Source: an uncultured Acidimicrobiales bacterium (GTDB lineage Bacteria > Actinomycetota > Acidimicrobiia > Acidimicrobiales > SZUA-35). Taken from it: a DNA stretch of 64,000 nt. The stretch covers positions 62,001 through 126,000 of the forward strand of contig CALAJQ010000003.1 in assembly GCA_937922785.1 (NCBI GenBank), read 5' to 3'. The notes beneath the pieces are model-generated. The model saw nothing but the letters and a program-made list of their open reading frames with translations. It was not told the DNA's origin and did no database searches. The translations under genes and the position numbers were made by a program. Below are positions 24,758 through 55,783 of this stretch, piece by piece; positions within the stretch are counted from its first letter, which is position 1, and each line of letters begins with the position of its first letter.

Positions 24758-25501
24758 TCAGCTAACCAGAGCGGAGGAAATCTCCGCCGCAGTCTTCAAT
24801 ATTGAGTCCTGTATCTCCTGGGCTCGTCCTCCAGGGAATCGATAAGCCGGACCCTGCACGTGAATAGCGGCCACTAGCTCCCCGCTGTTGTTAACTAACG
24901 GCGCAGCGATCGAAGTGAGTCCGGCCACCAAAGTCTCAGACGTCCAAGCGAAACCCACCTCACGAACTTGGTCTAGCTGAGCCCGCAAAGCCGCCGGCTC
25001 AGTTACCGAGGCAGGCATCGGAGCCTCCAGATTACGTTCCAGGTAAGTGTCGACCGCCTCCGATGGCCAACTCGCCATCGTGACCAACCCCGCCGACACA
25101 AGATGCATTGCCACTCTCACACCCTTCCAGTTTTGCACCTGGATTGGCTGGTTAGCTTTGGTCTCAAAGATGTAGTGCATCTCATAGCCGGTCGGCACAC
25201 TCATACCCGAGGTCTCACCAAGCCGCTCGGTCAGTTCTTCTAGATCGACCCGCACTCGGGCAGTGAGACTGGCGCTGGAATCTATTGACGCCGCTAGCTC
25301 GGCGATTCCGCTACCAATGCTGTAGAGACCGGTTGTGTCGTCGCGCTGCAGGGCCCCAAGCTCTTCGAGCGACCCAAGAAGGCGGCTAACTGTGCTGAGA
25401 GCCAGGTCGGTATTACGAGCCAGGTCTGTCAGCCCCATTGGCTTGGCAGCAACAGCCTCCAACAGCGCAAACGCTCTATCTAAACTTTGTACTGAACTCA
25501 T
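24758..25501 (-). CDS. IclR family transcriptional regulator
   Basis: 247 residues. The winged helix is at about 1-70 (SLDRAFALLEAVAAKPMGLTDLARNTDLALSTVSRLLGSLEELGAL). The GAF-like effector domain at about 80-245 includes ETSGMSVPTGYEMHYIF and the family-typical IHVQGPAYRF near the end. It is divergent from the corrinoid operon with 107 bp between starts, and that gap holds two IclR-type palindromes. A matching box also lies between the formate dehydrogenase and DsbA-like genes 30 kb away. I infer that it controls methyl-group catabolism; the effector is unknown. Confidence 0.92.
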   Translation of the reverse strand: MSSVQSLDRAFALLEAVAAKPMGLTDLARNTDLALSTVSRLLGSLEELGALQRDDTTGLYSIGSGIAELAASIDSSASLTARVRVDLEELTERLGETSGMSVPTGYEMHYIFETKANQPIQVQNWKGVRVAMHLVSAGLVTMASWPSEAVDTYLERNLEAPMPASVTEPAALRAQLDQVREVGFAWTSETLVAGLTSIAAPLVNNSGELVAAIHVQGPAYRFPGGRAQEIQDSILKTAAEISSALVS

Positions 25502-25540: not shown

Positions 25541-25573
25541 TTCCATGATACGGTTTATTTCCACATTATGGAA
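25541..25573. promoter_or_regulatory. Two IclR-type palindromic boxes before the corrinoid operon
   Basis: Box 1 is TTCCATGATACGGTT (25541-25555) and box 2 is TTCCACATTATGGAA (25559-25573). The outer arms GACTTCCAT and ATGGAAGTC also form a perfect 9-bp inverted repeat across both boxes (25539-25575). The location between the divergent iclR and corrinoid genes is where an IclR protein would bind. Confidence 0.7.
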
Positions 25574-25608: not shown

Positions 25609-26310
25609 ATGTCAGAAGATGTTGACGATATTGATCTCTCCGCACTTAGCGATGAAGACCTCACCGCGCAGATGCACGATGATCTCTACGACGGCCTCGC
25701 CGAAGAAATCGATGAAGGCACAAGGATCCTCCTCGACCGAGGATGGGGACCAGACAAGGTACTGAACGACGCCTTGGTCGAAGGCATGCGGATCGTCGGC
25801 ATCGACTTCCGTGACGGCATCTTGTTTGTGCCCGAAGTTCTCCTCGCCGCCAACGCCATGAAGGCCGGCATGGCTATCTTGCGTCCCCTCTTGGCCGAGA
25901 CAGGTGCAGAGTCAGTTGGCACCGTGGTAATCGGCACGGTTAAGGGCGACATCCACGACATTGGCAAGAACTTGGTTGCCATGATGCTCGAAGGCGCAGG
26001 CTTTGAAGTTCACGACATCGGAATCAACACCGACGCCGACGCCTTCCTTGCCGCCCTGGACGAGCACAAGCCTGACATTCTCGGCATGTCTGCGCTCCTA
26101 ACCACCACGATGCCTTACATGAAGGTGGTCATTGACACCCTCATCGAAAAGGGGCTTCGTGATGAGTACATCGTCTTGGTTGGAGGCGCTCCTTTGAACG
26201 AAGAGTTTGGCGAAGCAATCGGCGCAGACGCCTACTGTCGTGACGCGGCCGTTGCGGCCGAGACCGCAAAGACCAAGGTCGCTGAAGCCCGTGCAGCCCT
26301 CAAAGGCTGA
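25609..26310 (+). CDS. Corrinoid (B12-binding) methyl-carrier protein
   Basis: 233 residues built like MtmC/MtbC/MttC and methionine-synthase B12 modules. A four-helix cap covers about 20-95, and a cobalamin-binding Rossmann domain covers about 105-230. The lower-ligand motif is GDIHDIG, with D114, H116 and G119. MSALLTTTMPYMK and VGGAPLNEEFGEAIGADAY complete the cobalamin pocket. It carries a methyl group on cobalt between a substrate methyltransferase and a THF methyltransferase. It is the first gene of a tight operon. GAGG lies 8 bases before the ATG, and IclR boxes lie upstream. Confidence 0.95.
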   Translation: MSEDVDDIDLSALSDEDLTAQMHDDLYDGLAEEIDEGTRILLDRGWGPDKVLNDALVEGMRIVGIDFRDGILFVPEVLLAANAMKAGMAILRPLLAETGAESVGTVVIGTVKGDIHDIGKNLVAMMLEGAGFEVHDIGINTDADAFLAALDEHKPDILGMSALLTTTMPYMKVVIDTLIEKGLRDEYIVLVGGAPLNEEFGEAIGADAYCRDAAVAAETAKTKVAEARAALKG

Positions 26311-26902
26311 GAGACTTCTAGTAATCGCTTGTGGGGCGCTAGTGAAAGAACTTCGTGCTGTTCTTCAACAGCAAGGCCTCGGCCATATCGACGTACATTG
26401 GCTTCCAGCCCCCTACCACCAACGACCTGAGAAGATCGTGCCCGCGTTTCGCGAAGTGATGGCCGAAAAGGCCGACGCCTATGACCGGGTCGTAGTTGGC
26501 TACGCCGACTGTGGAACCGGCGGCTTGCTAGACGCCGCTCTTGCCGAATATGGCGGAATCGAGCGCATCCCTGGGGACCATTGCTATGAGTTCTTTGCTG
26601 GGAGCGAGGAATTCAAACAACTTCACGCCCAAGACCTCGGCACGTTCTTTCTTACCGACTACCTGGTCAAGCATTTCGACACCCTCATTTGGGGCCCGCT
26701 CGGCATGGACAAACATCCCGAGCTTCGGGACATGTACTTCGGCAACTACAACCGCTGCCTCTACTTGACCCAGACCCATGGCACTGAACTGGTTAGCGAT
26801 GCTCAGGCTGTCGCCGAACGGTTAGGTCTTGAATTCGAACTGATAGACACTGGACTCGAGCCGTTCGCCGAGACAGTTGTAACTCTTCTAGGAGCACAAT
26901 AA
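26291..26902 (+). CDS. DUF1638 family protein in the corrinoid operon
   Basis: About 203 residues from GTG 26291, overlapping the corrinoid gene by 20 bp; the upstream ATG at 26207 would overlap it by 104 bp and adds a Pro/Arg-rich stretch absent from the family. Conserved-looking features are LLVIACGALVKEL, VHWLPAPYHQRPEKI, VVVGYADCGTGG, IPGDHCYEFFAG and an HGTEL segment. Cys and His residues are concentrated in these motifs, hinting at metal or corrinoid binding. DUF1638 has no established function that I know of, but it recurs beside MttB-type methyltransferases. A role in corrinoid methyl transfer is inferred from context. Confidence 0.85.
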   Translation: MQPSKAERLLVIACGALVKELRAVLQQQGLGHIDVHWLPAPYHQRPEKIVPAFREVMAEKADAYDRVVVGYADCGTGGLLDAALAEYGGIERIPGDHCYEFFAGSEEFKQLHAQDLGTFFLTDYLVKHFDTLIWGPLGMDKHPELRDMYFGNYNRCLYLTQTHGTELVSDAQAVAERLGLEFELIDTGLEPFAETVVTLLGAQ

Positions 26903-27246: not shown

Positions 27247-28149
27247 ATGACGCGAACTATTCTTTCTAGTGCGACAAAAGAGGTCGTGATTGGATTCGAT
27301 CAACCGTTTGTGATGATCGGGGAACGGATCAACCCGACTGGCCGCAAGTTGCTTGCCGCTGAAATGAAAGAAGGCAACTTCGACCGTGTCATCGCCGACG
27401 CCATCGCTCAGGTTGAAGGCGGTGCTCAAATGCTTGACGTCAACGCAGGCATCCCGCTTGCTGATGAGCCCGCGCTTCTGGCCAAGGCAATCCAACTAGT
27501 TCAAGGTGTGACCGATGTTCCTCTTTGCATCGACTCTTCGATCATCGAAGCACTTGAGGCGGGTATTGCGGTCTATGAAGGCAAGCCACTCATTAACTCG
27601 GTAACCGGAGAGGATGAGAACCTCGAACGCGTTCTTCCGTTGGTGGCAAGACACGGCGCCGCAGTTGTTGCCATCTCAAACGACGAGACCGGCATTTCCG
27701 AAGACCCCGACGTCCGCTTTGAGGTAGCGAAGAAGATTGTAAACCGGGCAGCAGATCATGGAATCAAGCCTGAAGACGTTGTGGTTGATCCCCTCGTGAT
27801 GCCGATCGGAGCGATGGGAGGAGCAGGCCGTCAGGTTTTTGCTCTAGTTCATCGGCTCCGAACTGAGCTTGGCGTGAACACCACCTGCGGTGCTTCGAAC
27901 GTTAGCTTCGGGCTACCTAACCGCCACGTCGTAACCGGCACCTTCCTGGCAATGGCAATCAGCCATGGCATGACGTCAGCCATTATGAACCCTCTCCATA
28001 AAGAGGTGAAGGATTCCGTCATGGCCGCAGATGTGCTTAACAATCAGGATCCAAACTGTGCCGCCTGGATTCAAGCCAATCGAGACCCCAACGCCGATGC
28101 TGGGGCCCGGGGCCGCCGAACGGGACGTCGACGCGGCGCCTCCGCATAA
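27247..28149 (+). CDS. Methyltetrahydrofolate:corrinoid methyltransferase (MtgA/MtrH/AcsE-like)
   Basis: 300 residues with the pterin-binding TIM-barrel fold. FVMIGERINPTGRKLL is the family start motif. GAQMLDVNAGIP, LCIDSSIIEALEAG, PLINSVTG and GASNVSFGLPNR line the THF-binding face. It would move the methyl group from the corrinoid protein to tetrahydrofolate, giving 5-methyl-THF. It ends in an Arg/Gly tail (GARGRRTGRRRGASA). It starts immediately after the PF13769 stop and 15 bp before the RamA-like gene. Confidence 0.93.
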   Translation: MTRTILSSATKEVVIGFDQPFVMIGERINPTGRKLLAAEMKEGNFDRVIADAIAQVEGGAQMLDVNAGIPLADEPALLAKAIQLVQGVTDVPLCIDSSIIEALEAGIAVYEGKPLINSVTGEDENLERVLPLVARHGAAVVAISNDETGISEDPDVRFEVAKKIVNRAADHGIKPEDVVVDPLVMPIGAMGGAGRQVFALVHRLRTELGVNTTCGASNVSFGLPNRHVVTGTFLAMAISHGMTSAIMNPLHKEVKDSVMAADVLNNQDPNCAAWIQANRDPNADAGARGRRTGRRRGASA

Positions 28150-28164
28150 GGACTCGCCAGCTCT

Positions 28165-30186
28165 ATGCCCCGAGTTGTCTTTACTCCCTCTGGTCTCGAC
28201 GGCGAAGTCGTTGAAGGCACAACAGTGCTTGAAGCGGCGCGCCAACTGGGCGTCGACCTCGACACAGTCTGTGGTGGGAGAGGAATTTGCGGACGCTGTC
28301 AGGTGACACCAAGCGTTGGCACGTTCGATAAGTGGAGCATCAGCTCCACGGTCGCTGCGCTGACCGCGCCTGGTCCAACTGAGAACGAGTACCGGGGCAA
28401 ACGGCCTCTTCGCGATGGTCAACGCCTTGGCTGCTCAACCGGCATTTGTGGCGACGTCGTGCTCGACGTGCCGCCCGAAAGCCAGATCCACAAGCAGGTC
28501 GTGCGCAAAGAAGTAAACATCGAAGGGATCCAGCTCGACCCAACGATCGAGCTTCGGTACGTCGAACTGGTCATGCCTGAACTTGGCGAAGACGCCACTG
28601 CAGCTGATCTGATTGTCACGGCGTTAGCCAAAGAGTGGGACATCGAGGGTGCTGTTGTTGCCCCACAAGTTCTGCCGACGATTCATGCCGCAGTTGAATC
28701 TGACGAACCGGGGGCCACAGTTGCGTTGCGCCGCTCGGACTCCACCGTCGTTGCGGCCTGGGCCGGATTTGTAGACACCATCGTGGGTGTTGCAGTAGAC
28801 ATCGGCTCGACCACAGTGGCTGGCCATCTGTGCAACTTGGCAACTGGCGAAGTGTTGGCAACCTCGGGGCGCATGAACCCTCAGATTCGCTTTGGCGAAG
28901 ATCTCATGAGCCGGGTCTCCTACGTGATGATGAACCCAGGCGGGGACGTTGAGCTCACCACTGCGATCCGATCGACCTTGGACGAACTGGTCACCGATCT
29001 GTTGGACCAAACCAACCTTGGTGGGGCCAGCGTTTCTAGAGACAGCATTACGAGAGATAAAGTCTTAAGCATCACCCTGGTCGGTAATCCAGTGATGCAC
29101 CACATTCTCTTGGGTGTCGACCCGACTCCCTTGGGTGCGGCCCCCTTCCTGCTAGCCATAAGTGACGCGGTGCAGATGCGGGCCACGGAGCTAGATCTCA
29201 GCTGTCCAAACGCATCGGTCTATATCGCCCCTTGTATTGCTGGTCATGTGGGTGCTGACACTGCAGCGGCGGTGCTGTCTGAGGGTCCGCATCGCTCCGA
29301 TGAAGTGCAACTAATGGTTGACGTTGGAACCAACGCAGAGATCGTTCTTGGAAACAACAAGCGCCTGTTTGCAGCTTCGTCGCCCACAGGGCCAGCGTTC
29401 GAGGGCGCTCAGCTTTCGTGTGGGGTACGGGCTTCGGCCGGCGCTATCGAGCGCGTGCGGATTGATCGCGAAACGCTAGAACCTCGAATCAAGATCATCG
29501 GAACAGATCTGTGGAGCGACGAAGAGGGGTTCGACGAGGCGGCGAAAAAGCTTGGTGTTATCGGAGTCTGCGGCTCCGGAATAATCGAGGCCGTCGCCGA
29601 GCTTTTTCTGGCCCAGGTGCTCGACGAGGATGGCGTGGTTCGAAGCGAAGGAGCAGAACGAACTGAGCGTGTCATTCCTGATGGTCGAACCTTTTCCTAC
29701 GTTCTTTGGGGCGAACACCGAATCACTCAGAATGACGTCCGGGCAATCCAGCTGGCCAAGGCTGCCCTGCGCGCTGGCATCGATCTGCTAATGGAGCATG
29801 CCGAGCTAAACCACGTCGATGACGTGCGGCTGGCTGGGGCGTTCGGGTCACACATCGATCCGGTTTATGCAATGGTCTTGGGGCTCATCCCAGATTGCGA
29901 ACCAAGCTCTGTTTCATCATCTGGTAACTCAGCCGGAACGGGAGCTGTGCGGATGCTCCTTAGCGGGTCCGAGCGGTCTGAAATCGAGAACGTCGTTCGG
30001 TCGATCCACAAGATCGAAACCGCTACCGAACCAAGGTTTCAAGAGTTGTTTGTAAACGCAATGGCCTTCCCGCACAAGACAACACCAACACCCCATCTGG
30101 CCAAGGTCATAGACCTGCCGGCCCCGATGGAAAAAACTAACAACGAGGCCGGAGGTCGCCGTAGGCGACGGCGGCCGGCTAGCTAA
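28165..30186 (+). CDS. RamA-like reductive activator of corrinoid proteins (ASKHA/DUF4445, [2Fe-2S])
   Basis: 673 residues. The N-terminal ferredoxin domain has the cluster ligands C36-x5-C42-x2-C45 and C90 (VCGGRGICGRC, LGCSTGICGD). A linker domain is followed by the ASKHA ATPase core from about 205: VAVDIGSTTVAGHL (phosphate 1) and LMVDVGTNAEIVLGN (phosphate 2), with CGVRASAGAIERV and GVCGSGIIEAVAELF. It reduces inactive Co(II) corrinoid to Co(I) using ATP. The C-terminus is basic (GGRRRRRRPAS). It is encoded in the same operon as its presumed client, with the MttB gene 13 bp downstream. Confidence 0.93.
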   Translation: MPRVVFTPSGLDGEVVEGTTVLEAARQLGVDLDTVCGGRGICGRCQVTPSVGTFDKWSISSTVAALTAPGPTENEYRGKRPLRDGQRLGCSTGICGDVVLDVPPESQIHKQVVRKEVNIEGIQLDPTIELRYVELVMPELGEDATAADLIVTALAKEWDIEGAVVAPQVLPTIHAAVESDEPGATVALRRSDSTVVAAWAGFVDTIVGVAVDIGSTTVAGHLCNLATGEVLATSGRMNPQIRFGEDLMSRVSYVMMNPGGDVELTTAIRSTLDELVTDLLDQTNLGGASVSRDSITRDKVLSITLVGNPVMHHILLGVDPTPLGAAPFLLAISDAVQMRATELDLSCPNASVYIAPCIAGHVGADTAAAVLSEGPHRSDEVQLMVDVGTNAEIVLGNNKRLFAASSPTGPAFEGAQLSCGVRASAGAIERVRIDRETLEPRIKIIGTDLWSDEEGFDEAAKKLGVIGVCGSGIIEAVAELFLAQVLDEDGVVRSEGAERTERVIPDGRTFSYVLWGEHRITQNDVRAIQLAKAALRAGIDLLMEHAELNHVDDVRLAGAFGSHIDPVYAMVLGLIPDCEPSSVSSSGNSAGTGAVRMLLSGSERSEIENVVRSIHKIETATEPRFQELFVNAMAFPHKTTPTPHLAKVIDLPAPMEKTNNEAGGRRRRRRPAS

Positions 30187-45610: not shown

Positions 45611-48031
45611 GTGCTACAGAGTCAAGCTCGAGTCGTAATAATTGGCGGAGGAGTACACGGCGCTTCGCTTTTGTATCACCTAACGCTTGAAGGCTGGACA
45701 GATGTTGTCCTGATAGAAAAGGCAGAGCTGACATCAGGTTCGACCTGGCACGCGGCAGGGCAAATCACCCGGTCAGTTGGCGACTACACAACAGCTGCAT
45801 TCCATCATTACGCAATCGAGCTATATGAGCGGATCGAAGAAGCTACCGGCCAGGCTGTTTCTTTGCACCAGCCTGGCGGCCTGCGAATTGCCTACAACGA
45901 ACTCGAAATGGATGCGCTGCGAACGCACCTCGGTGTTGGGCGCTACATCGGTTACCCAATTGAGCTTGTCAGCCCCAAGGAAGCAGCCGATTTCAACCCT
46001 TTCTATGACTTCTCTGATGCTCTCGGTGCCATTTGGACCGAAGGCGAGGGTCACGTAGATCCATCTGGTGTGACGATGGCTTTCGCGGCCGGAGCTCGGG
46101 CTGCTGGCGCAACCATCTCGCGGCGAAACCGAGTTGTTGAGGTGAACAACCTGCCTAATGGCGAGTGGGAGGTCGTGACCGAGAAGGGCACCATCACTTG
46201 TGAACACGTTGTTGACGCCGCCGGTTGTTATGGCGACCAGGTCGCAGCTTTGTCCGGGTTTCGGGTTCCTCAGGCCAACGTGCTTCACCACTATCTAGTG
46301 ACCGACGAGGTACCCGAACTTGTTGAGCACGGCGTCGAAATGCCGGTCATGCGAGACAACAAAGTTGCTGGCTACATCCGTCAAGAACAGACCGCCGGCC
46401 TGATCGGAATCTATGAGCACCGCGGCGCAGAAATCGTCTGGCCCGACGGTGTCCCGTGGGAGGCCGAGAACCCGCTATTCCCTGCCGACTATGACAAGAT
46501 CGCTCCCTGGCTGGAAGAGGCCTTCAATCGAATCCCAATTCTGGGTGAGGTTGGCATCAAACGTGTGGTTCACGGCGCCATAACCCACACCACTGACGCT
46601 CACATGCTGCTGGGTCCAGCGCCTGGTGTTCGCAACTACTGGCTGAACACCGGCTCATCAATTGGTTTGGCGTGGGGGCCAGGAGCTGGTCGGGAGCTTG
46701 CCCGCTGGATGGTTCACGGCGAGACCGAGTTGAACCTGCGTCACTATGACCCTCGCCGTTTCGGTTGGGCCAGCCAGGACTACATCGCAGCCAAGTCCAC
46801 TGAGGACTATGAGTGGATGTTCCGGGTCCACCCTCCAGGTGAAGAGCGCCTAGCCCACCGCCCTGTACGGACTTCAGGCCTTTATGAAAAGCTCAAGGCC
46901 AAGCGTGCGTTCTTCGGCCAGTCCTATGGCTGGGAAAGTCCGAAGTGGTTCGTTCCCGAGGACCAGCCTTTAGAGGACGTCTACGGTTGGCGCCGCCCCG
47001 ACTGGTACCGGGCCGTCGAGGCTGAGTGCAAGGCCGTTCGCGAACAGGTAGGCGTAATCGACCTTACTGCGTTCGCCAAGTACGAGATGACTGGTGCCGA
47101 TGCAAACGCTGTGTTGAACAACATGACCACGGGCCGCATCCCCAAGACTGACGGCCGTATCGCACTGAACTATTTGCTTAACGAACAAGCCCGGATTGAA
47201 ACAGAGATCACAGTCACCCGCCTTGCCGAAGACAGGTACTACATCATCTCAGGTCCGATGGGCGAGCTTCGAGACTTCGACTGGATCAACCAGCACATTC
47301 CTGAAGGCGCCGATGTCACCCTGACCGACTTGTCGACAACCAACGGTGTCATTGTTATCGCCGGTCCGAACTCTCGAGAGTTGCTAAGTCGGTGCACCGA
47401 CGCCGACGTTTCGCCTGAAGAGTTCAAGTTCCTGAGTGGCCGACACATCACAATTGCTGGCGTCGAGGTGCTGGCGCTGCGGGTTGGTTTCACCGGTTCG
47501 CTTGGTTGGGAACTCCACATGGCTATGGATGCCATGGAAGCTGTGTACGACTCATTGTGGGCCAACAGCGAAGGGACTGGCCTTGTCGACTTTGGCGGCT
47601 ACGCGCTGAACTCGATGCGCCTTGAAAAAGGCTATCTCGCTCGCCAAGAGCTGACCCATGACATCGGCCCGAAACAGGCTGGCGTCGACTTCTTCGTGAA
47701 GGCCGACAAGGGAGACTTCATCGGAAGAGACAAACTAGACGCGCCCCCCACTGGCAACCCGTGGAAGCTCGTGATGCTTGAAGTTGATGCCGCCGACGCA
47801 GACTGCCAAGGGGGCGAAGGTGTTTTCGCCACTGATGGCTCGCCGCTGGGCTTGGTGACCTCTGGTGGGTTTGGCTTCTACACACAAAAGAGTTTGGCAT
47901 TTGCCTACATTTCCGAAAGCCATTCGGAACCGGGCACTGAGATGGACGTGCTAATTCTGGGCGAACCGCAGCGGGCCACGGTCCGAGGCGAAGATGCCTA
48001 TGACCCCACCAACTCCGCACTGCGGGCCTAA
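45611..48031 (+). CDS. GcvT-type FAD-dependent N-demethylase 1 (dimethylglycine/sarcosine dehydrogenase family)
   Basis: 806 residues. The FAD-binding Rossmann motif is IIGGGVHGAS (11-18 region), and the flavin-linking histidine region is GSTWHAAGQ, His47. Residues about 1-380 are the DAO oxidase domain, then an FAO linker, and from about 430 an aminomethyltransferase (GcvT) domain that binds THF (FAKYEMTGADANAVLNNM, VGFTGSLGWELHM, NSMRLEKGYLA). It oxidises an N-methyl group and passes the one-carbon unit to THF. Its substrate within the dimethylglycine/sarcosine range cannot be told from sequence. GTG start with AGGGGA upstream; it forms an operon with the next gene (19-bp gap). Confidence 0.9.
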   Translation: MLQSQARVVIIGGGVHGASLLYHLTLEGWTDVVLIEKAELTSGSTWHAAGQITRSVGDYTTAAFHHYAIELYERIEEATGQAVSLHQPGGLRIAYNELEMDALRTHLGVGRYIGYPIELVSPKEAADFNPFYDFSDALGAIWTEGEGHVDPSGVTMAFAAGARAAGATISRRNRVVEVNNLPNGEWEVVTEKGTITCEHVVDAAGCYGDQVAALSGFRVPQANVLHHYLVTDEVPELVEHGVEMPVMRDNKVAGYIRQEQTAGLIGIYEHRGAEIVWPDGVPWEAENPLFPADYDKIAPWLEEAFNRIPILGEVGIKRVVHGAITHTTDAHMLLGPAPGVRNYWLNTGSSIGLAWGPGAGRELARWMVHGETELNLRHYDPRRFGWASQDYIAAKSTEDYEWMFRVHPPGEERLAHRPVRTSGLYEKLKAKRAFFGQSYGWESPKWFVPEDQPLEDVYGWRRPDWYRAVEAECKAVREQVGVIDLTAFAKYEMTGADANAVLNNMTTGRIPKTDGRIALNYLLNEQARIETEITVTRLAEDRYYIISGPMGELRDFDWINQHIPEGADVTLTDLSTTNGVIVIAGPNSRELLSRCTDADVSPEEFKFLSGRHITIAGVEVLALRVGFTGSLGWELHMAMDAMEAVYDSLWANSEGTGLVDFGGYALNSMRLEKGYLARQELTHDIGPKQAGVDFFVKADKGDFIGRDKLDAPPTGNPWKLVMLEVDAADADCQGGEGVFATDGSPLGLVTSGGFGFYTQKSLAFAYISESHSEPGTEMDVLILGEPQRATVRGEDAYDPTNSALRA

Positions 48032-48050
48032 GGCTGTTTAGGAGTTCATC

Positions 48051-50492
48051 ATGGCAAACGCACCAGAACGGGCAGAAGTAATTGTTGTTGGCGGTGGCAT
48101 CGTTGGATGCTCTATTGCCTACCACCTAACCAAAAAGGGCATCTCAGATGTCCTAGTTCTTGACCGGCACGAGTTAACGGGCGGTACCACCTGGCATGCG
48201 GCAGGACTTGTAGCCCAATTACGGTCAACCGAGAACACCACACGCCTTGCCCAGTACTCTCTCGAGCTATATCGCAACCTAGAAGCCGAAACGGGCCAGT
48301 CAACTGGCTTTATGGCGCCAGGGGCAATCTCACTGGCATCAACCGAGCACCGTTGGGAAGAGCTACGCCGCACTGCTGCGATGGCGCGGTACCTAGGAGT
48401 CGACGCAACCGAGATCGGACCGAACGAGATCCTCGAGAAGTTCCCGCTGTGTGAAGTCTCAGACATCGTTGGCGGCATCTGGTTACCCGAAGACGGAACG
48501 GTTGGACCATCCGACTGCACCATGGCCCTAGCCAAGGGCGCCCGAATGGGCGGTGCCAAGATCCTTGAGCACACCGGCGTCGCCGACATCATCGTCACCG
48601 ACGGTCGCGCGTCGGGTGTTATCACCGAAGACGGCCAGACCATTGAGGCCGACACCGTTGTGTTGGCGTGTGGGCTTTGGACTCGTCACCTTGCTGCCAA
48701 GGTCGGCGTTCGTGTTCCGCTAATGGCAGCCGAACACCACTACGTAGTGACCGAGCCCATCCCTGGTGTTGACCAAGACTGGCCCATTCTGCGAGACCCT
48801 GATCGCTGGGCTTATCTAAAGCCTGAGGCCGGCGGCTCAATGCTTGTTGGCCTATTCGAGCCTGTGTCTCGGCCGTGGCCGGCATCAGGCCCGCCACCCA
48901 CAGACAAATCCTTCATCTCGATGGAACCTGACGCCGACCACCTTTCGGACTGGCTGCCGCCGACGTTTGACCGGATCCCGGCCCTTCACGAGGCCGGCCT
49001 TCGCTTACTGTTTGACGGTCCGGAAAGCTTCACCCCCGACGACAACTACATACTCGGCGAGGCACCAAACCTGCCGCGATTGTTTGTAGCAGCCGGGTTC
49101 AACTCCATCGGCATCCAGTCTGCCGGCGGCGCCGGTATGGCGATGGCCCACTGGATCACCGAGGGCGAATCGCCAATGGATCTGGCCGATGTTGATATCC
49201 GCCGATTCGAGCCGTTCCACTCCACCGAATCGTTCCTTCGGCAAAGGACCGTTGAGGGCCTCGGCCTGCTCTACGCGCCGCACTGGCCCCATCGCCAGTA
49301 CGACACGGCCCGAGACGTTCGCCGCTCTCCCCTGCATGATCGGCTCAGCGACGCTGGCGCGTGTTTCGGATCGCTCATGGGTTGGGAACGGCCTATGTTC
49401 TTTGCCCGCCCCGAGCTAGGCATTGAACCCAAGTTTGAATACTCGTGGGGTCGCCAGAACTGGCACGAAGCAAACGCCATTGAACACAAGGCTGTTCGCG
49501 AAGCAGCAGGGCTGTTCGACCAGACAAGCTTTGCCAAGTTCTTGGTTCAAGGACGTGACGCAGGTGCTGTCATGAACCGCCTCGCCGCCAACGACGTCGT
49601 TCGCGAGGTAGGCACTTCGGTATACACGCAATGGTGTAACGAACGAGGTGGTATCGAAGCCGACCTCACTGTAAACCACGTAGCCGAAAATGAATTCTGG
49701 GTTATCGGTGGTGCAGGCACTCGCTCTCGGGACCTTGCGTGGATTCGCAAGGGCATCGCCGAACACCCAGGTGGCGAGGCCAACGCCACAGTTACCGACA
49801 TCACCTCCGCCTACGCAGTCCTTGCGGTGATGGGTCCGAACTCACGAGATCTGTTACAGCCTTTGACCGACCATGACATGTCCGAAGAGGCGTTTCCGTT
49901 TGCCACCCATGCCGAGATCAACCTCGGCACCGCTGTGGTAATCGCCAACCGGATGTCATATGTTGGCGAACTTGGCTGGGAGCTCTATGTCCCAACTGAA
50001 TTTGCCGTGTCGGTTTTTGACCTACTTACCGAAGCTGGGAAGGACCACGGCCTGGAGCTTTGTGGGTACCAGACTCTTAACTCTCTGCGCTTCGAAAAGG
50101 GCTACCGGCATTGGGGTCACGAGGTTACGCCTGATGACACGCCCGTGCAGGCTGGCCTATCGTTTGCAGTCGGTTGGGACAAAGACGACTTCATCGGCAA
50201 GGACGCTCTTGTGGCCCAACGGGCCGAAGGCGCCAGCCGGCGCCTTGTGCAAGTAGCGGTGTTTGATGCCGACGTTCTACTACACCACCATGAGCCGCTG
50301 TACCGAAACGGCGAACGAGTTGGCTACGTAACTGACGGAATGTGGGGCCACACTGTTGGCGCCGCCGTCGGCATGGCCTGGGCCTACGGTGACTCTAAGA
50401 TCACTAAGGCTTGGATTGACGAAGCTAACTGGGAAATTGAACTACCCGGCCGAATGGTTCCGGCCCAAGTGCAGTTCAGGCCTTTCCTCTAG
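48051..50492 (+). CDS. GcvT-type FAD-dependent N-demethylase 2
   Basis: 813 residues with the same layout as its upstream neighbour: VVGGGIVGCSIAYHL for FAD, GGTTWHAAGL with His49 as the probable covalent flavin site, then linker and GcvT domain (FAKFLVQGRDAGAVMNRL, MSYVGELGWELYVP, NSLRFEKGYRHWGHEV). AGGAG lies 8 bases before the ATG. The close match to mitochondrial DMGDH/SARDH organisation suggests that the pair does successive demethylations. It converges on the formate dehydrogenase operon 14 bp later. Confidence 0.92.
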   Translation: MANAPERAEVIVVGGGIVGCSIAYHLTKKGISDVLVLDRHELTGGTTWHAAGLVAQLRSTENTTRLAQYSLELYRNLEAETGQSTGFMAPGAISLASTEHRWEELRRTAAMARYLGVDATEIGPNEILEKFPLCEVSDIVGGIWLPEDGTVGPSDCTMALAKGARMGGAKILEHTGVADIIVTDGRASGVITEDGQTIEADTVVLACGLWTRHLAAKVGVRVPLMAAEHHYVVTEPIPGVDQDWPILRDPDRWAYLKPEAGGSMLVGLFEPVSRPWPASGPPPTDKSFISMEPDADHLSDWLPPTFDRIPALHEAGLRLLFDGPESFTPDDNYILGEAPNLPRLFVAAGFNSIGIQSAGGAGMAMAHWITEGESPMDLADVDIRRFEPFHSTESFLRQRTVEGLGLLYAPHWPHRQYDTARDVRRSPLHDRLSDAGACFGSLMGWERPMFFARPELGIEPKFEYSWGRQNWHEANAIEHKAVREAAGLFDQTSFAKFLVQGRDAGAVMNRLAANDVVREVGTSVYTQWCNERGGIEADLTVNHVAENEFWVIGGAGTRSRDLAWIRKGIAEHPGGEANATVTDITSAYAVLAVMGPNSRDLLQPLTDHDMSEEAFPFATHAEINLGTAVVIANRMSYVGELGWELYVPTEFAVSVFDLLTEAGKDHGLELCGYQTLNSLRFEKGYRHWGHEVTPDDTPVQAGLSFAVGWDKDDFIGKDALVAQRAEGASRRLVQVAVFDADVLLHHHEPLYRNGERVGYVTDGMWGHTVGAAVGMAWAYGDSKITKAWIDEANWEIELPGRMVPAQVQFRPFL

Positions 50493-50506: not shown

Positions 50507-51346
50507 TTAGTCAGGCTGTACGTACTTCCAGCCGAATCGACCCTTAATGCAAAGGTGTCCGCTAGTCACCGAGTGATCGTTCGGTGATGTCACCTTCACG
50601 ATCTTTTCATCCTGCACATGCATTTCCAGGTTGCAGCCGACCCCGCAGTAGGAGCACACGGTGGTTGTGACTGTTTGCTCCTCGGGCTTCCAGTTGTCCT
50701 CTTGGCGCAAATCCCACTCGGTCTTGAATTGAATGGCGCCTGTCGGGCACACAGCCACACAGTTGCCGCAGTAGACACACGCCGATTCGGGTAAGGCCAC
50801 ATCGAACTCTGTAGAAATTCTGGATTCGAACCCACGCCCGCTGACCGCAATAGCAAATGTGTGCTGAGCGTCATCGCCACAGGCCTCTACGCACTTGTAA
50901 CAGAGGACGCACTTGTCATAGTCACGGATGTAGAGGTTGTCTTGAATCTTCACCTCTTCTTGGATCTTCAAAGGATCGTGGTAGCGAGTGGTATCGGCTC
51001 CGTAGTGAGCTGACCACTTGTTCATGTCGTCAGCTTGAGACAGATCTGTACCGCTGCCAAGGAACTCCAGGACCATTTTGCGTGAGTGTTTAACTCTGTC
51101 TGAGTCAGTCTGGACTTCCATACCTTCTTCAGCTGCGCGTGAACACGACGGCACCAATGTTCGGTTGCCTTCGACTTCCACCACACACACGCGGCACACA
51201 TTTACCGGGGTCAGGTTCTCCGCATAACAAAGCGTTGGCGTGTCTATGCCGGCCGCGTTACAGGCGTCAAGAATTGTGGCTCCGCTGGGTACCGAAACGT
51301 CATTGCCATCAACTTTGATTGTTACTTGAGTTTCTGTGACGGTCAT
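50507..51346 (-). CDS. Formate dehydrogenase iron-sulfur subunit (detached N-terminus of FdsA/FdhA)
   Basis: 279 residues. A [2Fe-2S] domain covers about 1-80 (TLCYAENLTPVNVCRVCVVEVEG), then a His/Cys region, two [4Fe-4S] ferredoxin motifs at about 138-205 (DKCVLCYKCVEACG; SACVYCGNCVAVC) and a Molybdop_Fe4S4 module at about 230-270 (CSYCGVGCNLE, CIKGRFGW). In usual NAD-linked FDHs all of this is fused to the molybdopterin domain. Here it ends at KYVQPD, and the catalytic part is a separate gene two positions upstream. It wires electrons from Mo/W to FMN. ATGA overlap with the NuoEF-like gene. Confidence 0.92.
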   Translation of the reverse strand: MTVTETQVTIKVDGNDVSVPSGATILDACNAAGIDTPTLCYAENLTPVNVCRVCVVEVEGNRTLVPSCSRAAEEGMEVQTDSDRVKHSRKMVLEFLGSGTDLSQADDMNKWSAHYGADTTRYHDPLKIQEEVKIQDNLYIRDYDKCVLCYKCVEACGDDAQHTFAIAVSGRGFESRISTEFDVALPESACVYCGNCVAVCPTGAIQFKTEWDLRQEDNWKPEEQTVTTTVCSYCGVGCNLEMHVQDEKIVKVTSPNDHSVTSGHLCIKGRFGWKYVQPD

Positions 51347-53103
51347 GATGCTCCTATTAGGCCCATTGCGATCGCGGAACGGACGGCCGTTGCCGCCGTG
51401 TGGCCGAGGCCGCAGATCGATGCGTCTCTCATTGCCATATCCATTTCTTCAATCAGCTTCACTTCACCGTTGAGTGAGCGGCCGCTGTTCTTAACCAAGA
51501 TTTCGTGTTGCCGAACTACTCCAACCCGACAAGGCACACATTGCCCGCAGCTCTCGTTGCGGAAGAACTCTGCAATGCGCGTTACGACTGCGTCGAAATT
51601 CGTCGTGTCGTTGAAGGGCATGATTACGCCTGACCCAAGTGAGGCCCCACGCTCTCGTGAACCTTCGAACGTAAGCGGCATGTCAAGCATGTCCGGACCA
51701 ACGAAGCTGCCAGCGGCGCCGCCCAAGAGGATGGCCTTGAGGTTGCCGGTAACTCCCCCAGCTTTTTCGATCATTTCGCCCAATGTGACTCCGAACGGAA
51801 CTTCGTAAACGCCTGGAGTTGCGATGTGGCCACTCAAACAGAACAGCTTTGGTCCGGTCGATCGTTCGGTACCGATCTGGCCGTAAGCCTCACCGCCGCC
51901 AAGCACGATGGGCAATACGTTAATCAGTGTCTCTGGATTGTTAATGGCTGTGGGCTTGTCGAACAGGCCGTTGGTTGTAGGGAACGGAGGCTTCTGGCGA
52001 GGTTCGCCTCTGAAACCTTCCAGTGAATTAAACAGAGCGGTCTCTTCTCCACAAATGTAGGCACCAGCGCCTCTGCGGATTTCGAGTTCAAACTTGATTG
52101 ATGAACGGGCAATACCCTCGCCCAAGAATCCGGCCTTTACTGACTCGTCAATTGCATTCTGTAGCCGAGCTGTAGCCAGCGGGTACTCGCCTCTGATGTA
52201 GACGTAGCCTTTTTCGGCGCCGGTCGCGAAGCCAGCAATGGTGGCGGCCTCAACCAAGGAGAACGGATCGTGCTCCATGATGACCCGGTCTTTGAAGGTC
52301 CCGGGTTCTGACTCATCTGCGTTGACGACGATGAACTTGTCGCCTGTTTCGCCGGCAACTGCCTTCCATTTGATGCCGGTCGGGAACGCAGCGCCTCCTC
52401 GGCCCATCAGGCCCGAAGCTGAGACGTCTTCAAGTACACCGTCTGCACCTTTTCGGAACGCTTCGGCAAGCGCCTTGAAGCCGCCCGCGCCGATGTACTG
52501 CTCCAAGCTGGTTGGATCTATCCGCCCCACCCTCTTTAGTAGCTGTAGCTCTGGGTCATAGGCCTGAGGCAAGTTGAACGCTGCTGGTTGGCCACCGGGT
52601 TCCCAATCAGCGGGAACCGAGTTCGGACCTTGTCGACCTTGAATGAACAAAGCCGGAGCACGGTCGCACTGACCAAGACATGGGCTGCGGTGGATGTGCT
52701 TACCTTCAGCCTCGAGCTTCAATATGAGGTCATCCGATGCAGCGATCTGACACGCAGCGTCGACGCACACGTGCACTACATCGTCGTTGTGGTCAGGCGC
52801 TTCGTCGACCTTGAACATCTCATAGAAGCTGGCCACCCCGTATGCCTCAGCCGGCGGCACCTGCAAGAAATCAGAGATGTAGTTGAGCCCGCCAGGTGAG
52901 ATCCACCCGGAATGGGTTTGCAGCGCGTGAAGCGCCGGCAACAGGTAATGCCGGCTTTCATTCTTGCGGGAAGTACCGCCTCGAATTAGGCGCTCACCTA
53001 AAGTCAGCTCGGCGCGCTCGGCGCCAATCTCAGATAAGGCAAAATCAATCGCAGCGGCTTCTTCGGCCGTGGCGCGATCTTCTGTTAGATAGAGGTCGGC
53101 CAC
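51343..53103 (-). CDS. NAD-dependent formate dehydrogenase diaphorase subunit (NuoE-NuoF fusion)
   Basis: 586 residues. The N-terminal ~160 are NuoE-like with a [2Fe-2S] ligand set (VHVCVDAACQ and CLGQCDRAPAL). The rest is NuoF-like: GRGGAAFPTGIKW and NADESEPGTFKDR for FMN/NADH, GAGAYICGEETAL, and a C-terminal [4Fe-4S] motif ESCGQCVPCRVG with a fourth Cys in ICGLG. It hands formate-derived electrons to NAD+. FdsG and FdsB are separate in the best-known soluble FDHs; the fusion is a variant. The GTG start overlaps the catalytic-subunit stop by 1 bp. Confidence 0.92.
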   Translation of the reverse strand: MADLYLTEDRATAEEAAAIDFALSEIGAERAELTLGERLIRGGTSRKNESRHYLLPALHALQTHSGWISPGGLNYISDFLQVPPAEAYGVASFYEMFKVDEAPDHNDDVVHVCVDAACQIAASDDLILKLEAEGKHIHRSPCLGQCDRAPALFIQGRQGPNSVPADWEPGGQPAAFNLPQAYDPELQLLKRVGRIDPTSLEQYIGAGGFKALAEAFRKGADGVLEDVSASGLMGRGGAAFPTGIKWKAVAGETGDKFIVVNADESEPGTFKDRVIMEHDPFSLVEAATIAGFATGAEKGYVYIRGEYPLATARLQNAIDESVKAGFLGEGIARSSIKFELEIRRGAGAYICGEETALFNSLEGFRGEPRQKPPFPTTNGLFDKPTAINNPETLINVLPIVLGGGEAYGQIGTERSTGPKLFCLSGHIATPGVYEVPFGVTLGEMIEKAGGVTGNLKAILLGGAAGSFVGPDMLDMPLTFEGSRERGASLGSGVIMPFNDTTNFDAVVTRIAEFFRNESCGQCVPCRVGVVRQHEILVKNSGRSLNGEVKLIEEMDMAMRDASICGLGHTAATAVRSAIAMGLIGAS

Positions 53104-55055
53104 TAGGCGTCGGCTCCCGCAGTCTCTAGATCAGCTTTCGCTGGTTCGATTTTCTCAACCCGGATTGCCGCTGCTTTGAACTCTGACGTGCCGGATTTAC
53201 GATCCCACTCGTCATTGGTCAACACGTTTGCATCAACCAGCTCTGGGAAGTGGAACGTGGTGAAGGTAAGGCCTTCTGGAATGTCGGGCTGAACCCGAAT
53301 GGCCATGTCAACCGAGCCTCGTGGCGAAGAGACCCGCACGGTCTCCCCGTTGGTGATGCCAAGGCGTTCGCAATCGGCGGGGTTCATATCCAGCTCGTCC
53401 CCGTAGCGAATCGGGCTGTCATAACCGCCGCTCTGAACACCAGTGTTGTAGCTGTCGAGCGCTCGGCCGGTTGTCAGCCGGATTGGGAACTCTTCGCTTA
53501 ACTCTTCCTTAGGTCCAGCGTGATCTACTGCTGAGAAGGGCGCAGGCGGGTTCCCACCAAGATCGTCCTCCCAGAGCCAACCGTGCAGAAATGGGCTGCC
53601 TGGATGATCGAGCGAGGGGCAGGGCCACTGCAGGCCGCCTTCAGATTCGAGACGGTCATAGGTCATGCCTGCGTGCATCGGAGAAAGGCTAAGCAGCTCA
53701 TTCCACAACTCTTCGGGCGTAGGGTCGCCCCAATCGAATCCCATTCGACGGGCTAGCTCGCCGATGATCCACTCGTCGTGGCGGGCTTCACCTGGCGGCG
53801 GAACTGCAGCACGAACTCGTTGAACTCGGCGCTCCGACGAGGTGACAGTGCCCTCATTCTCGGCCCATCCAACAGATGCGGGCAACACAACGTCGGCAAG
53901 TTCGGCGGTGCGAGTCATGAAGATGTCCTGAACCACCAACATGTCAAGCCCACTCAGCAAGTTACGGGCGTGGGTGATGTCGGCTTCTGAGTCTGCTGGG
54001 TTTTCACCGATTACATAGGCAGTGGTTATTTCACCCCGTCCCATCGCTTCAAACATGAGCGTCAGGTGGATGCCTGGTTCTGCTGGTAAGTCGACGCCGT
54101 AGACGGTCTCGAACTTCTTGAGCGAAACCTCGTCGGTGATGTCTTGGAAACCGGGCAGCTTGTTAGGCAAGGCGCCCATGTCTCCGCCACCTTGCACGTT
54201 GTTCTGGCCTCGAAGCGGAACCAGCCCGCTACCCCAACGACCCACGTGGCCAGTAAGCAGCGAGAGGTTGCAAAGAGCCAGCACGTTGTCTACAGCGTTG
54301 TGGTGCTCAGTGATACCCAGAGTCCACAGAATCTGAGCCTTCTCGGCCTTGGCATAAGCCTCGGCCATCTCGGCAATAGCGTGTGCAGGAACCCCCGTTA
54401 GTTGTTCGCCAACCTCAAGCGTGTATGGCTTCACGCTTTCGACGAAGTCTTCGTAACCGGTGGTTGAGTGCTTAATGAAGGCTTCGTTTACCAGGCCCTC
54501 ATTGATTATGTGGTTGGCCACGGTATTGGCCAACGCCACATCTGAACCCAGCTCTAACCCAAGCCAGAGGTCGGCAAACTTAGATGATGATGAGCGACGC
54601 GGATCAACCGAGTACATCTTGGCCCCGTTGTCGAGGCCAGTCATTAGGTGATGGAAGAAGATGGGGTGGGCTTCTCGGGCATTGGATCCCCAAAGCAGGA
54701 TGACATCGGTTTCCTCGATCTCTTTATAAGAACAAGTTCCGCCACCTGCACCAAACACTGTCGCCAGACCGACGACCGAAGGAGCGTGTCAGGTTCGGTT
54801 GCAAGAGTCGATGTTGTTAGAGCCCAACACCGCTCTGGAGAACTTCTGTGCTGCGTAGTTCATTTCGTTTGTGCTCTTTGAGCAGCTGAACATCGCAAAC
54901 GCGGTCGGCCCCAAAGTGTCCTTTGTTTGGGTAAATCCGGCCACTACTTTGTTGAGTGCTTCATCCCAAGATGCCGGGCGAAGCTCGCCACCTTTGGTGT
55001 CTCGGATCAGCGGCGTGGTAAGCCGCTCCTTGGGGTAATAGTTCCTTTTTGCCAT
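53103..55055 (-). CDS. Selenocysteine-containing formate dehydrogenase catalytic subunit (UGA read-through)
   Basis: About 650 residues including selenocysteine, read through the in-frame TGA at 54791-54789 (residue 89 from ATG 55055; a GTG at 55070 is an alternative start). The flanks read NNIDSCNRT-U-HAPSVVGL, aligning with the E. coli FdhF active site, where Sec sits in the same VUHGPSVAGL context. Both halves are in one frame and together cover the molybdopterin oxidoreductase domain and the C-terminal dinucleotide-binding domain (IRLTTGRALDSYNTGVQSGG). A SECIS-like hairpin follows the TGA. The Fe4S4 N-terminal module is a separate downstream gene. It oxidises formate to CO2. Calling only 53103-54758 loses the active site. 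Confidence 0.93.
54760..54791 (-). promoter_or_regulatory. Bacterial SECIS-like element in the formate dehydrogenase mRNA
   Basis: Reading the minus strand, the UGA at 54791-54789 is followed by 18 nt and then the apical loop GGUCU (54770-54766), closed by GUCGUC (54776-54771) pairing with GGCGAC (54765-54760), one pair being U-G. E. coli fdhF also places GGUCU 18 nt after its UGA (from memory of that sequence). The loop also encodes the conserved Gly-Leu, so the stem is the more independent evidence. Confidence 0.85.
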
Positions 55056-55097
55056 ACCTAAGTATCGCACCTATACGAGGCGCTAGCACCACGAAGC

Positions 55098-55119
55098 GGA
55101 AGTCTTCCACAATGCGGAA
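55098..55119. promoter_or_regulatory. IclR-type box between the two selenoprotein genes
   Basis: TTCCACAATGCGGAA (55105-55119) matches 12 of 15 positions of TTCCACATTATGGAA upstream of the corrinoid operon and keeps its palindromic arms. An overlapping perfect palindrome, GGAAG-T-CTTCC, is at 55098-55108. The site lies in the 113-bp divergent gap between the FDH and DsbA-like genes. Confidence 0.65.
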
Positions 55120-55168: not shown

Positions 55169-55783
55169 ATGGATTTAGATTTTTGGGTTGACCCCATTTG
55201 ACCTTGGTGTTGGGTGACTGCCCGTTGGGTAGTCGATGAAGTACAACCACAGCGAGACCTAAACATAAACTGGCGACCGATCTCACTACTGGTCAAGAAT
55301 CAGCCACCCAAAGACTCTGAGTACTACGACGCTGCGATGGCAACACACCGCATGCTTCGAGTTATGGAATCTGTGCGCAAAGCCGAAGGTGACGGCCCGA
55401 TCCAGGCGCTGTATTGGGAGCTTGGAACCCGAGTTCACCACGATGGCGACCGCAACTTCGATATTGCCGATGCGCTAACTGCGGTGGGCCTAGACGCTTC
55501 TCACGCGGCTGCTGCCGATGATGAGTCATGGGACGAGGTCATCACCGACGACATGGACCAGGGTCTTACGCTTACCGGTACTGATGTTGGCACCCCGCTT
55601 CTTGGGTTTACCGACAAAAACGGCAACCAGAAGGGCATTTTTGGTCCCGTGATCTCAAAGGTCCCGCCCAAAGAAGACTCTCTCGCGTTGTTTGATGCCA
55701 TGGTCACAATGGCCACGATGGATGGGTTCTGGGAGCTAAAGCGGACCAGAACCGAAGGTCCACAGTTCGGCGACCGACCCTAG
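55169..55783 (+). CDS. Selenocysteine-containing DsbA-like oxidoreductase (UPWC; Rv2466c family)
   Basis: About 204 residues including selenocysteine. ATG 55169 is the only possible start, because TAG lies in frame at 55157. The N-terminus reads MDLDFWVDPI-U-PWCWVTARW, with TGA at 55199-55201. This aligns with FWFDPLCPWAW/CPWC at the N-terminus of mycothiol-linked Rv2466c-type DsbA proteins, so Sec replaces the first catalytic Cys (UPWC, residues 11-14). The rest fits that family end to end: LYWELGTRVHHDGDRNFDI, VGTPLLGF (cis-Pro), FGPVISKVPP, FWELKRTRTEGPQF. It probably reduces or isomerises thiols with mycothiol. Starting at GTG 55214 removes the active site. Confidence 0.9.
55199..55234 (+). 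promoter_or_regulatory. Candidate SECIS hairpin in the DsbA-like mRNA
   Basis: After the UGA (55199-55201), GACUGCCC (55216-55223) pairs with GGGUAGUC (55227-55234) over 8 bp including one G-U, closing a GUU loop that begins 22 nt after the UGA. Distance, strong stem and a G at the loop start fit the loose bacterial SECIS consensus. The loop differs from the GGUCU loop of the neighbouring gene. Confidence 0.7.

What the first reader, a model, noticed from the sequence alone, without database searches (positions are those of the whole stretch)
55098..55119. Same 15-bp IclR box precedes the corrinoid operon and the FDH/DsbA pair
TTCCACATTATGGAA (25559-25573), TTCCATGATACGGTT (25541-25555) and TTCCACAATGCGGAA (55105-55119) share TTCCA and a palindromic layout. 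The iclR gene is beside the first two. A shared regulon would tie methyl transfer to formate oxidation across 30 kb.
Basis: partly seen in the sequence, partly recalled or inferred. Interest (0 to 1): 0.74.

Follow-up and report, generated by a model that had tools for sequence, protein, structure and literature searches.

The report
IclR operators on methyl-oxidation genes
A pair of matching DNA docking sites, probably for one regulator protein, sits in front of three separate sets of genes that together strip methyl groups off a nutrient and burn them to carbon dioxide, so this bacterium and its relatives probably switch the whole pathway on and off together.

Summary
All three boxes are present. 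They belong to 33-bp operators: two TTCC-N7-GGAA palindromes 18 bp apart, centre to centre (25541-25573 and 55087-55119). In the whole 4.9-Mb genome the only 0-1-mismatch copies of this tandem lie at the corrinoid operon, at fdhA, and, 151 bp beyond the window, before fhs (formate-THF ligase) and a metF-like gene. A matrix trained only on relatives' corrinoid and fhs promoters scores the three sites 35, 25 and 37 bits; shuffles reach about -13 ± 5.5. The operator precedes the corrinoid gene in 35 of 38 further actinobacterial loci and 0 of 12 proteobacterial ones. The fdhA site is less conserved (6 of 26 clear). C1-linked IclR genes in relatives lie by the corrinoid operon, fdhA or fhs. Best reading: one IclR regulon covering corrinoid demethylation, MetF, Fhs and formate dehydrogenase. 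Binding, sign of regulation and effector are inferred. Caveat: the genome has two other IclR genes, and the C1-linked IclRs of relatives form two clades. It is a new regulon of a known regulator type, not a new mechanism.

The parts
25541..25573 (.). Operator O1: tandem boxes TTCCATGATACGGTT-TAT-TTCCACATTATGGAA, 18 bp centre to centre, between iclR and the corrinoid operon
   Evidence: 1 mismatch, one of three best in the genome; 35.0 bits with a matrix from relatives only; conserved in relatives
55087..55119 (.). Operator O2: tandem boxes, on the - strand TTCCGCATTGTGGAA-GAC-TTCCGCTTCGTGGTG, between fdhA and the DsbA/Rv2466c-like gene
   Evidence: 1 mismatch; 25.4 bits; shuffle maxima -12.9 +/- 5.4; clear in 6 of 26 relatives' fdhA promoters
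24758..25501 (-). iclR, the proposed regulator
   Evidence: PF09339 53 bits and PF01614 91 bits; clade A in the tree; not an equivalog of any named IclR
25609..26310 (+). corrinoid protein (MtgC/MtbC-like), first gene of the operon
   Evidence: PF02310 99 bits; MtgC model 206 bits, below its cut-off of 370
26207..26902 (+). DUF1638 protein (true start probably downstream, about 26334)
   Evidence: PF07796 90 bits
26902..27246 (+). small 'Virulence_fact' (PF13769) protein
   Evidence: 66 bits; gene kept at this place in most relatives
27247..28149 (+). methyl-THF:corrinoid methyltransferase (MtgA/MtgD-type)
   Evidence: PF00809; NF005719 361 bits, above its cut-off of 259
28165..30186 (+). RACo-type reductive activator of corrinoid proteins
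   Evidence: PF14574 277 bits
30200..31747 (+). MttB-superfamily methyltransferase without pyrrolysine (MtgB-like)
   Evidence: PF06253 711 bits; closest solved chains 4yyc, 2qne and 9yce, the last named glycine betaine methyltransferase
53103..55055 (-). fdhA, formate dehydrogenase catalytic subunit with selenocysteine (TGA, codon 89)
   Evidence: TIGR01591 645 bits over model positions 49-672; TGA kept in relatives
51343..53103 (-). NuoE-NuoF fusion, NADH-linked subunit of the formate dehydrogenase
50507..51346 (-). HoxU/NuoG-like Fe-S subunit that ends in the missing N-terminal Fe4S4 domain of FdhA
55169..55783 (+). DsbA/Rv2466c-like protein, probable selenoprotein (UPWC), divergent from fdhA; possible second target of O2
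   Evidence: PF22234; in-frame TGA at the active-site position and a hairpin after it

Best explanation
The boxes are operators of one IclR-family regulator, most likely the product of the adjacent gene 24758-25501. Each operator is two TTCC-N7-GGAA palindromes 18 bp apart, so two dimers (a tetramer) would sit side by side on nearly the same face of the DNA. The regulator controls a dispersed pathway. The corrinoid operon moves methyl groups from a methylated amine (probably glycine betaine or a similar quaternary amine) to tetrahydrofolate; the metF-like protein and FolD oxidise methyl-THF to formyl-THF; Fhs releases formate with ATP; and Sec-FDH oxidises formate to CO2 with NADH. Shown: the sites, their spacing, their near-uniqueness in the genome at these three promoters, and their conservation. 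Inferred: that this IclR binds all of them, that it acts as a repressor released by a pathway metabolite and also represses its own gene through O1 (about 65% for repressor over activator), and the substrate.
For: Tandem pattern: the only 0-1-mismatch sites in 4.9 Mb are the fhs, corrinoid and fdhA promoters. Matrix from relatives' corrinoid and fhs sites finds all three own sites at 25-37 bits against shuffle maxima of about -13 +/- 5.5. The 3-nt gap is strictly the best of 13 gap lengths in 18 of 22 corrinoid and 23 of 26 fhs promoters (counted). 35 of 38 further actinobacterial loci have the operator before the corrinoid gene, 0 of 12 proteobacterial loci do. In relatives the C1-linked iclR lies beside the corrinoid operon, near fdhA or near fhs, and in several loci iclR, the corrinoid operon, mttB, fhs and metF form one cluster. 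Tandem sites 18-22 nt apart are typical of IclR proteins, which can bind as tetramers (PMC8222616).
Against: No binding or expression data. The genome has two more IclR genes, one of them with a similar single box upstream (C7:56308). C1-linked IclRs of relatives form two clades (A at the corrinoid operon, B at fdhA or fhs), not one. The fdhA operator is clear in only 6 of 26 relatives. No sigma-70-like promoter was found at either site to place the operators against.
Confidence: 0.77

Rival explanations
1. The operators are real, but the fdhA and fhs sites are read by another IclR (for example the C7 paralogue), so the corrinoid operon and formate oxidation are controlled separately by look-alike sites.
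For: The genome has three IclR genes; the C7 gene has TTCCACGATATGGAA upstream; in many relatives the IclR near fdhA or fhs belongs to a different clade from the corrinoid-linked one.
Against: The C7 box is single and scores -10.7 with the tandem matrix, against 25-37 for the three C1 sites; C7 and C17 fall outside both C1-linked clades; one matrix fits the corrinoid and fhs sites together.
Confidence: 0.15
2. The sites are conserved operators of a regulator from another family that happens to favour the same palindrome.
For: Binding was not measured; a sequence palindrome alone does not name its protein.
Against: The motif and the 18-bp tandem spacing fit the published IclR group 1 pattern, and an iclR gene is repeatedly found next to the operator or the target genes.
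Confidence: 0.05
3. The boxes are chance matches to a short palindrome.
For: With 2 mismatches the single-box pattern is no more frequent in the window than in shuffles; with 1 mismatch in the genome it is close to its reversed-pattern control.
Against: Conservation at orthologous promoters, fixed 18-bp register, and absence from proteobacterial orthologues.
Confidence: 0.02

Closest known systems
IclR-family group 1 regulators with tandem sites (Suvorova and Gelfand 2021, PMC8222616)
   Same: IclR HTH and C-terminal domains, palindrome of the TYCRY-N3-RYGRA type, two sites about 18 bp apart, regulator gene beside its target.
   Different: Target set (corrinoid demethylation, Fhs, metF-like gene, formate dehydrogenase); spacing at the low end of the published 18-22 nt range.
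BhcR and PcaR/PcaU subfamilies of IclR
   Same: Best NCBIfam matches of the window IclR (144 and 122 bits).
   Different: Both far below the curated cut-offs (350 and 285 bits), and the gene neighbourhood is different.
Aerobic MtgBCD glycine betaine demethylation (Ruegeria pomeroyi; PMC12478193)
   Same: MttB-superfamily enzyme, corrinoid protein and pterin methyltransferase passing methyl groups to tetrahydrofolate, followed by THF-linked oxidation.
   Different: Here in an Acidimicrobiia-type genome, with an IclR operator system that the proteobacterial orthologues examined do not carry. The substrate is untested.

Membership tests
IclR family | HTH_IclR plus IclR_C domains | tested here: met
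   PF09339 53.3 bits (cut-off 22) and PF01614 90.6 bits (cut-off 24)
IclR family, group 1 operator type | Palindrome GKTYCRYW3-4RYGRAMC, core TYCRY-N3-RYGRA | tested here: met
   TTCCRYNNTRYGGAA at the four best boxes; consensus definition from PMC8222616
IclR family, tandem-site subset | Two sites 18-22 nt apart between centres | tested here: met
   18 bp in all three own operators; the 3-nt gap is best of 13 in most relatives
IclR family | This protein binds these sites | not testable with these tools
   Needs EMSA or footprinting
BhcR (NF045644) | Curated equivalog score | tested here: not met
   144 bits against a cut-off of 350
MtgBC-type glycine betaine methyltransferase system | MttB-family enzyme, corrinoid protein, methyl-THF methyltransferase and RACo in one operon | tested here: met
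MtgBC-type glycine betaine methyltransferase system | Corrinoid protein reaches the MtgC model cut-off | tested here: not met
   205.9 bits against 370 for the best MtgC model, which is an 'exception' type model
MtgBC-type glycine betaine methyltransferase system | Glycine betaine as substrate | not testable with these tools
   The MttB superfamily has several quaternary-amine substrates (PMC12478193)

The most novel reading that the evidence does not exclude
A lineage-wide IclR switch in Acidimicrobiia controls cobalamin-dependent methyl-group oxidation from demethylation to CO2, and its two IclR clades have shifted among the corrinoid, fdhA and fhs loci while keeping a nearly identical 33-bp operator; the effector could be a C1 intermediate rather than the methylated substrate.
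Probability: 0.2. Interest if true: 0.65.

Novelty: new member of a known kind. Interest (0 to 1): 0.5.

Why it matters
It predicts a regulator and an operator for aerobic corrinoid-dependent methyl oxidation in a widespread, largely uncultured actinobacterial group, and indicates that demethylation, Fhs and formate dehydrogenase act as one physiological unit there. The 33-bp matrix can be used to pick out further regulon members, and so missing pathway steps and transporters, in other genomes of the group.

Tried and rejected
The 1-mismatch site at C3:38078, about 700 bp upstream of a second MttB gene, looked like a regulon member but lies inside an ORF that reads as a LysR-type regulator: rejected. 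TTCCATCTTGTGGAA at C6:156729 overlaps the 3' end of a mycothiol-dependent formaldehyde dehydrogenase ORF and recurs identically in seven genomes, as a conserved coding stretch would: rejected as an operator. The perfect box at C29:98871 lies at the 3' end of a convergent gene and has no tandem partner: taken as chance. The two dimethylglycine-dehydrogenase-like genes (45611-50492) have no operator. Sigma-70 promoter scans gave nothing usable. In several Microthrix and MedAcidi-type loci fhs lacks its own operator; there it follows mttB directly and would share its transcript.

Full report
OBSERVATION. The three boxes are present at the stated coordinates. TTCCRYNNTRYGGAA has 7 distinct places in the 4.9-Mb genome: the corrinoid box, the fdhA box, two boxes at C3:126151 and C3:126169 (the first 151 bp past the window's end), and three others. 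The C3:126151/126169 pair lies upstream of a gene that matches formate-tetrahydrofolate ligase (775 bits, NF010030) and starts at C3:126249; a metF-like gene follows it (PF02219, 26 bits, just over cut-off). The three others are a box upstream of another iclR gene, a box overlapping the 3' end of a formaldehyde dehydrogenase ORF, and one at the 3' end of a convergent gene.

THE REAL UNIT IS A TANDEM. At the corrinoid operon and at fhs the two boxes are exactly 18 bp apart. At fdhA a degenerate second box (TTCCGCTTCGTGGTG on the - strand, 55087-55101) lies in the same register. A whole-genome search with TTCC-N7-GGWA-N3-TTCC-N7-GGWA found 0 mismatches at fhs, 1 at the corrinoid operon and 1 at fdhA, and no other site below 2. 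Overall counts up to 3 mismatches do not exceed the reversed-pattern control, so only these top sites are informative.

RELATIVES. 36 genomes of the same family and 24 of the same order were searched for MttB, and subsets of them for FdhA, Fhs and IclR; promoters were fetched. The tandem appears before the corrinoid gene and before fhs in nearly all genomes where the locus was available. Against 12 other gap lengths in the same promoters, the 3-nt gap is strictly best in 18 of 22 corrinoid and 23 of 26 fhs promoters, own genome included (counted; chance would give about 1 in 13).

INDEPENDENT TEST OF fdhA. A 33-bp matrix was trained on 42 corrinoid and fhs sites of relatives only, with no fdhA site and no site of this genome. 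It scores the window's corrinoid site 35.0, the fhs site 37.5 and the fdhA site 25.4 bits; the maxima of 1000 dinucleotide shuffles are about -13 with sd 5.5. Six of 26 fdhA promoters in relatives have strong sites (10.6 to 33.5 bits); Fisher's combination over all 26 gives p 6.6e-12. Related genomes are not independent, so this p is optimistic. No other tandem site in the window exceeds 2 bits; the 9.4-bit entry at 55105 overlaps O2 itself.

WIDER SAMPLE. 80 named MttB loci were fetched; the closest are Acidimicrobiia MAGs (Acidimicrobiales, Acidimicrobiaceae, Ilumatobacter, Microthrix, MedAcidi-G2B), the more distant mostly Proteobacteria. Only 51 of 4315 windows of 300 bp in these loci pass the same threshold, real sites included. 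In some loci the operator also precedes mttB (L204, L207, L217), a metF-like gene (L186, L190, L192), or lies between fdhA and iclR (L188).

WHICH REGULATOR. Three genes of the genome match the window IclR at E below 1e-15 (further HTH_IclR hits are weak). The one in the window is divergent from the corrinoid operon with O1 between them, the usual IclR layout. In relatives, C1-linked iclR genes sit beside the corrinoid operon, near fdhA, or near fhs. The IclR tree puts them in two supported clades: A (corrinoid-linked, includes this one, 99/95) and B (fdhA- or fhs-linked, 98/97; one further fhs-linked sequence stands alone); the paralogues C7 and C17 fall elsewhere. Read from the alignments, fhs box 1 is of a TTCTGTAT type (TTTTGTAT in one) in most clade-B genomes and in no clade-A genome, and the clades differ in the recognition helix (PISTASRLL against PKSTVARLL). 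This fits regulator and operator changing together but could also be shared ancestry. Five of the six relatives with a clear fdhA operator have a clade-A regulator.

MECHANISM. IclR proteins can bind DNA as tetramers, and tandem palindromes 18-22 nt apart are typical (PMC8222616). Repression relieved by a small-molecule effector is common in the family (established knowledge), and O1 and O2 lie about 30-70 bp upstream of start codons, where a bound tetramer could block RNA polymerase. No start sites are mapped, so the sign of regulation is inferred. The pathway is MttB plus corrinoid protein plus pterin methyltransferase to methyl-THF; the metF-like protein and FolD to formyl-THF; Fhs to formate plus ATP; Sec-FDH with NuoEF to CO2 plus NADH. 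It follows from the gene content and from the published aerobic MtgBCD pathway (PMC12478193). FolD was not looked for here.

WHAT IS KNOWN. The motif, spacing and protein are those of a group 1 IclR regulator. Paper searches found no IclR regulator of MttB-type or corrinoid C1 oxidation; the library is incomplete, so this is weak evidence of novelty. It is a new regulon of a known regulator type.

Noticed in passing
55169-55783 (+), TGA at 55199-55201: The DsbA/Rv2466c-like gene has an in-frame TGA exactly at the first active-site cysteine (MDLDFWVDPI-U-PWCW) and a hairpin right after it, so it is probably a selenoprotein; its true start is 55169, not 55214. It lies next to the selenocysteine FDH.
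   Followed up: partly
50507-55055 (-): The formate dehydrogenase catalytic subunit is split: model TIGR01591 positions 1-49 (the Fe4S4 domain) are at the C-terminus of the HoxU/NuoG-like protein 50507-51346 and positions 49-672 are in fdhA 53103-55055. FdhA matches in relatives begin at the same N-terminus.
   Followed up: partly
L204:9844, L207:9865, L217:9852; L186:17135, L190:13482, L192:8700; L188:18601: Further copies of the tandem operator in relatives: before mttB, before a metF-like gene, and between fdhA and iclR.
   Followed up: partly
L157, L164, L156, L171 (upstream of iclR paralogues): Some other IclR paralogues in relatives have their own different tandem box of a GTCCCAT-N-ATGGGAC type upstream.
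   Followed up: no
G009:C25, G012:C656, G026:C75, G032:C21, G010:C146: Other iclR genes lie next to MttB paralogues (about 35-40% identical to the window MttB), hinting at several IclR and MttB pairs for different methylated substrates.
   Followed up: no
45611-50492 (+): Two adjacent dimethylglycine/sarcosine-dehydrogenase-like proteins (DAO + GCV_T) lie between the corrinoid operon and fdhA. They would complete glycine betaine demethylation but carry no operator of this type.
   Followed up: partly
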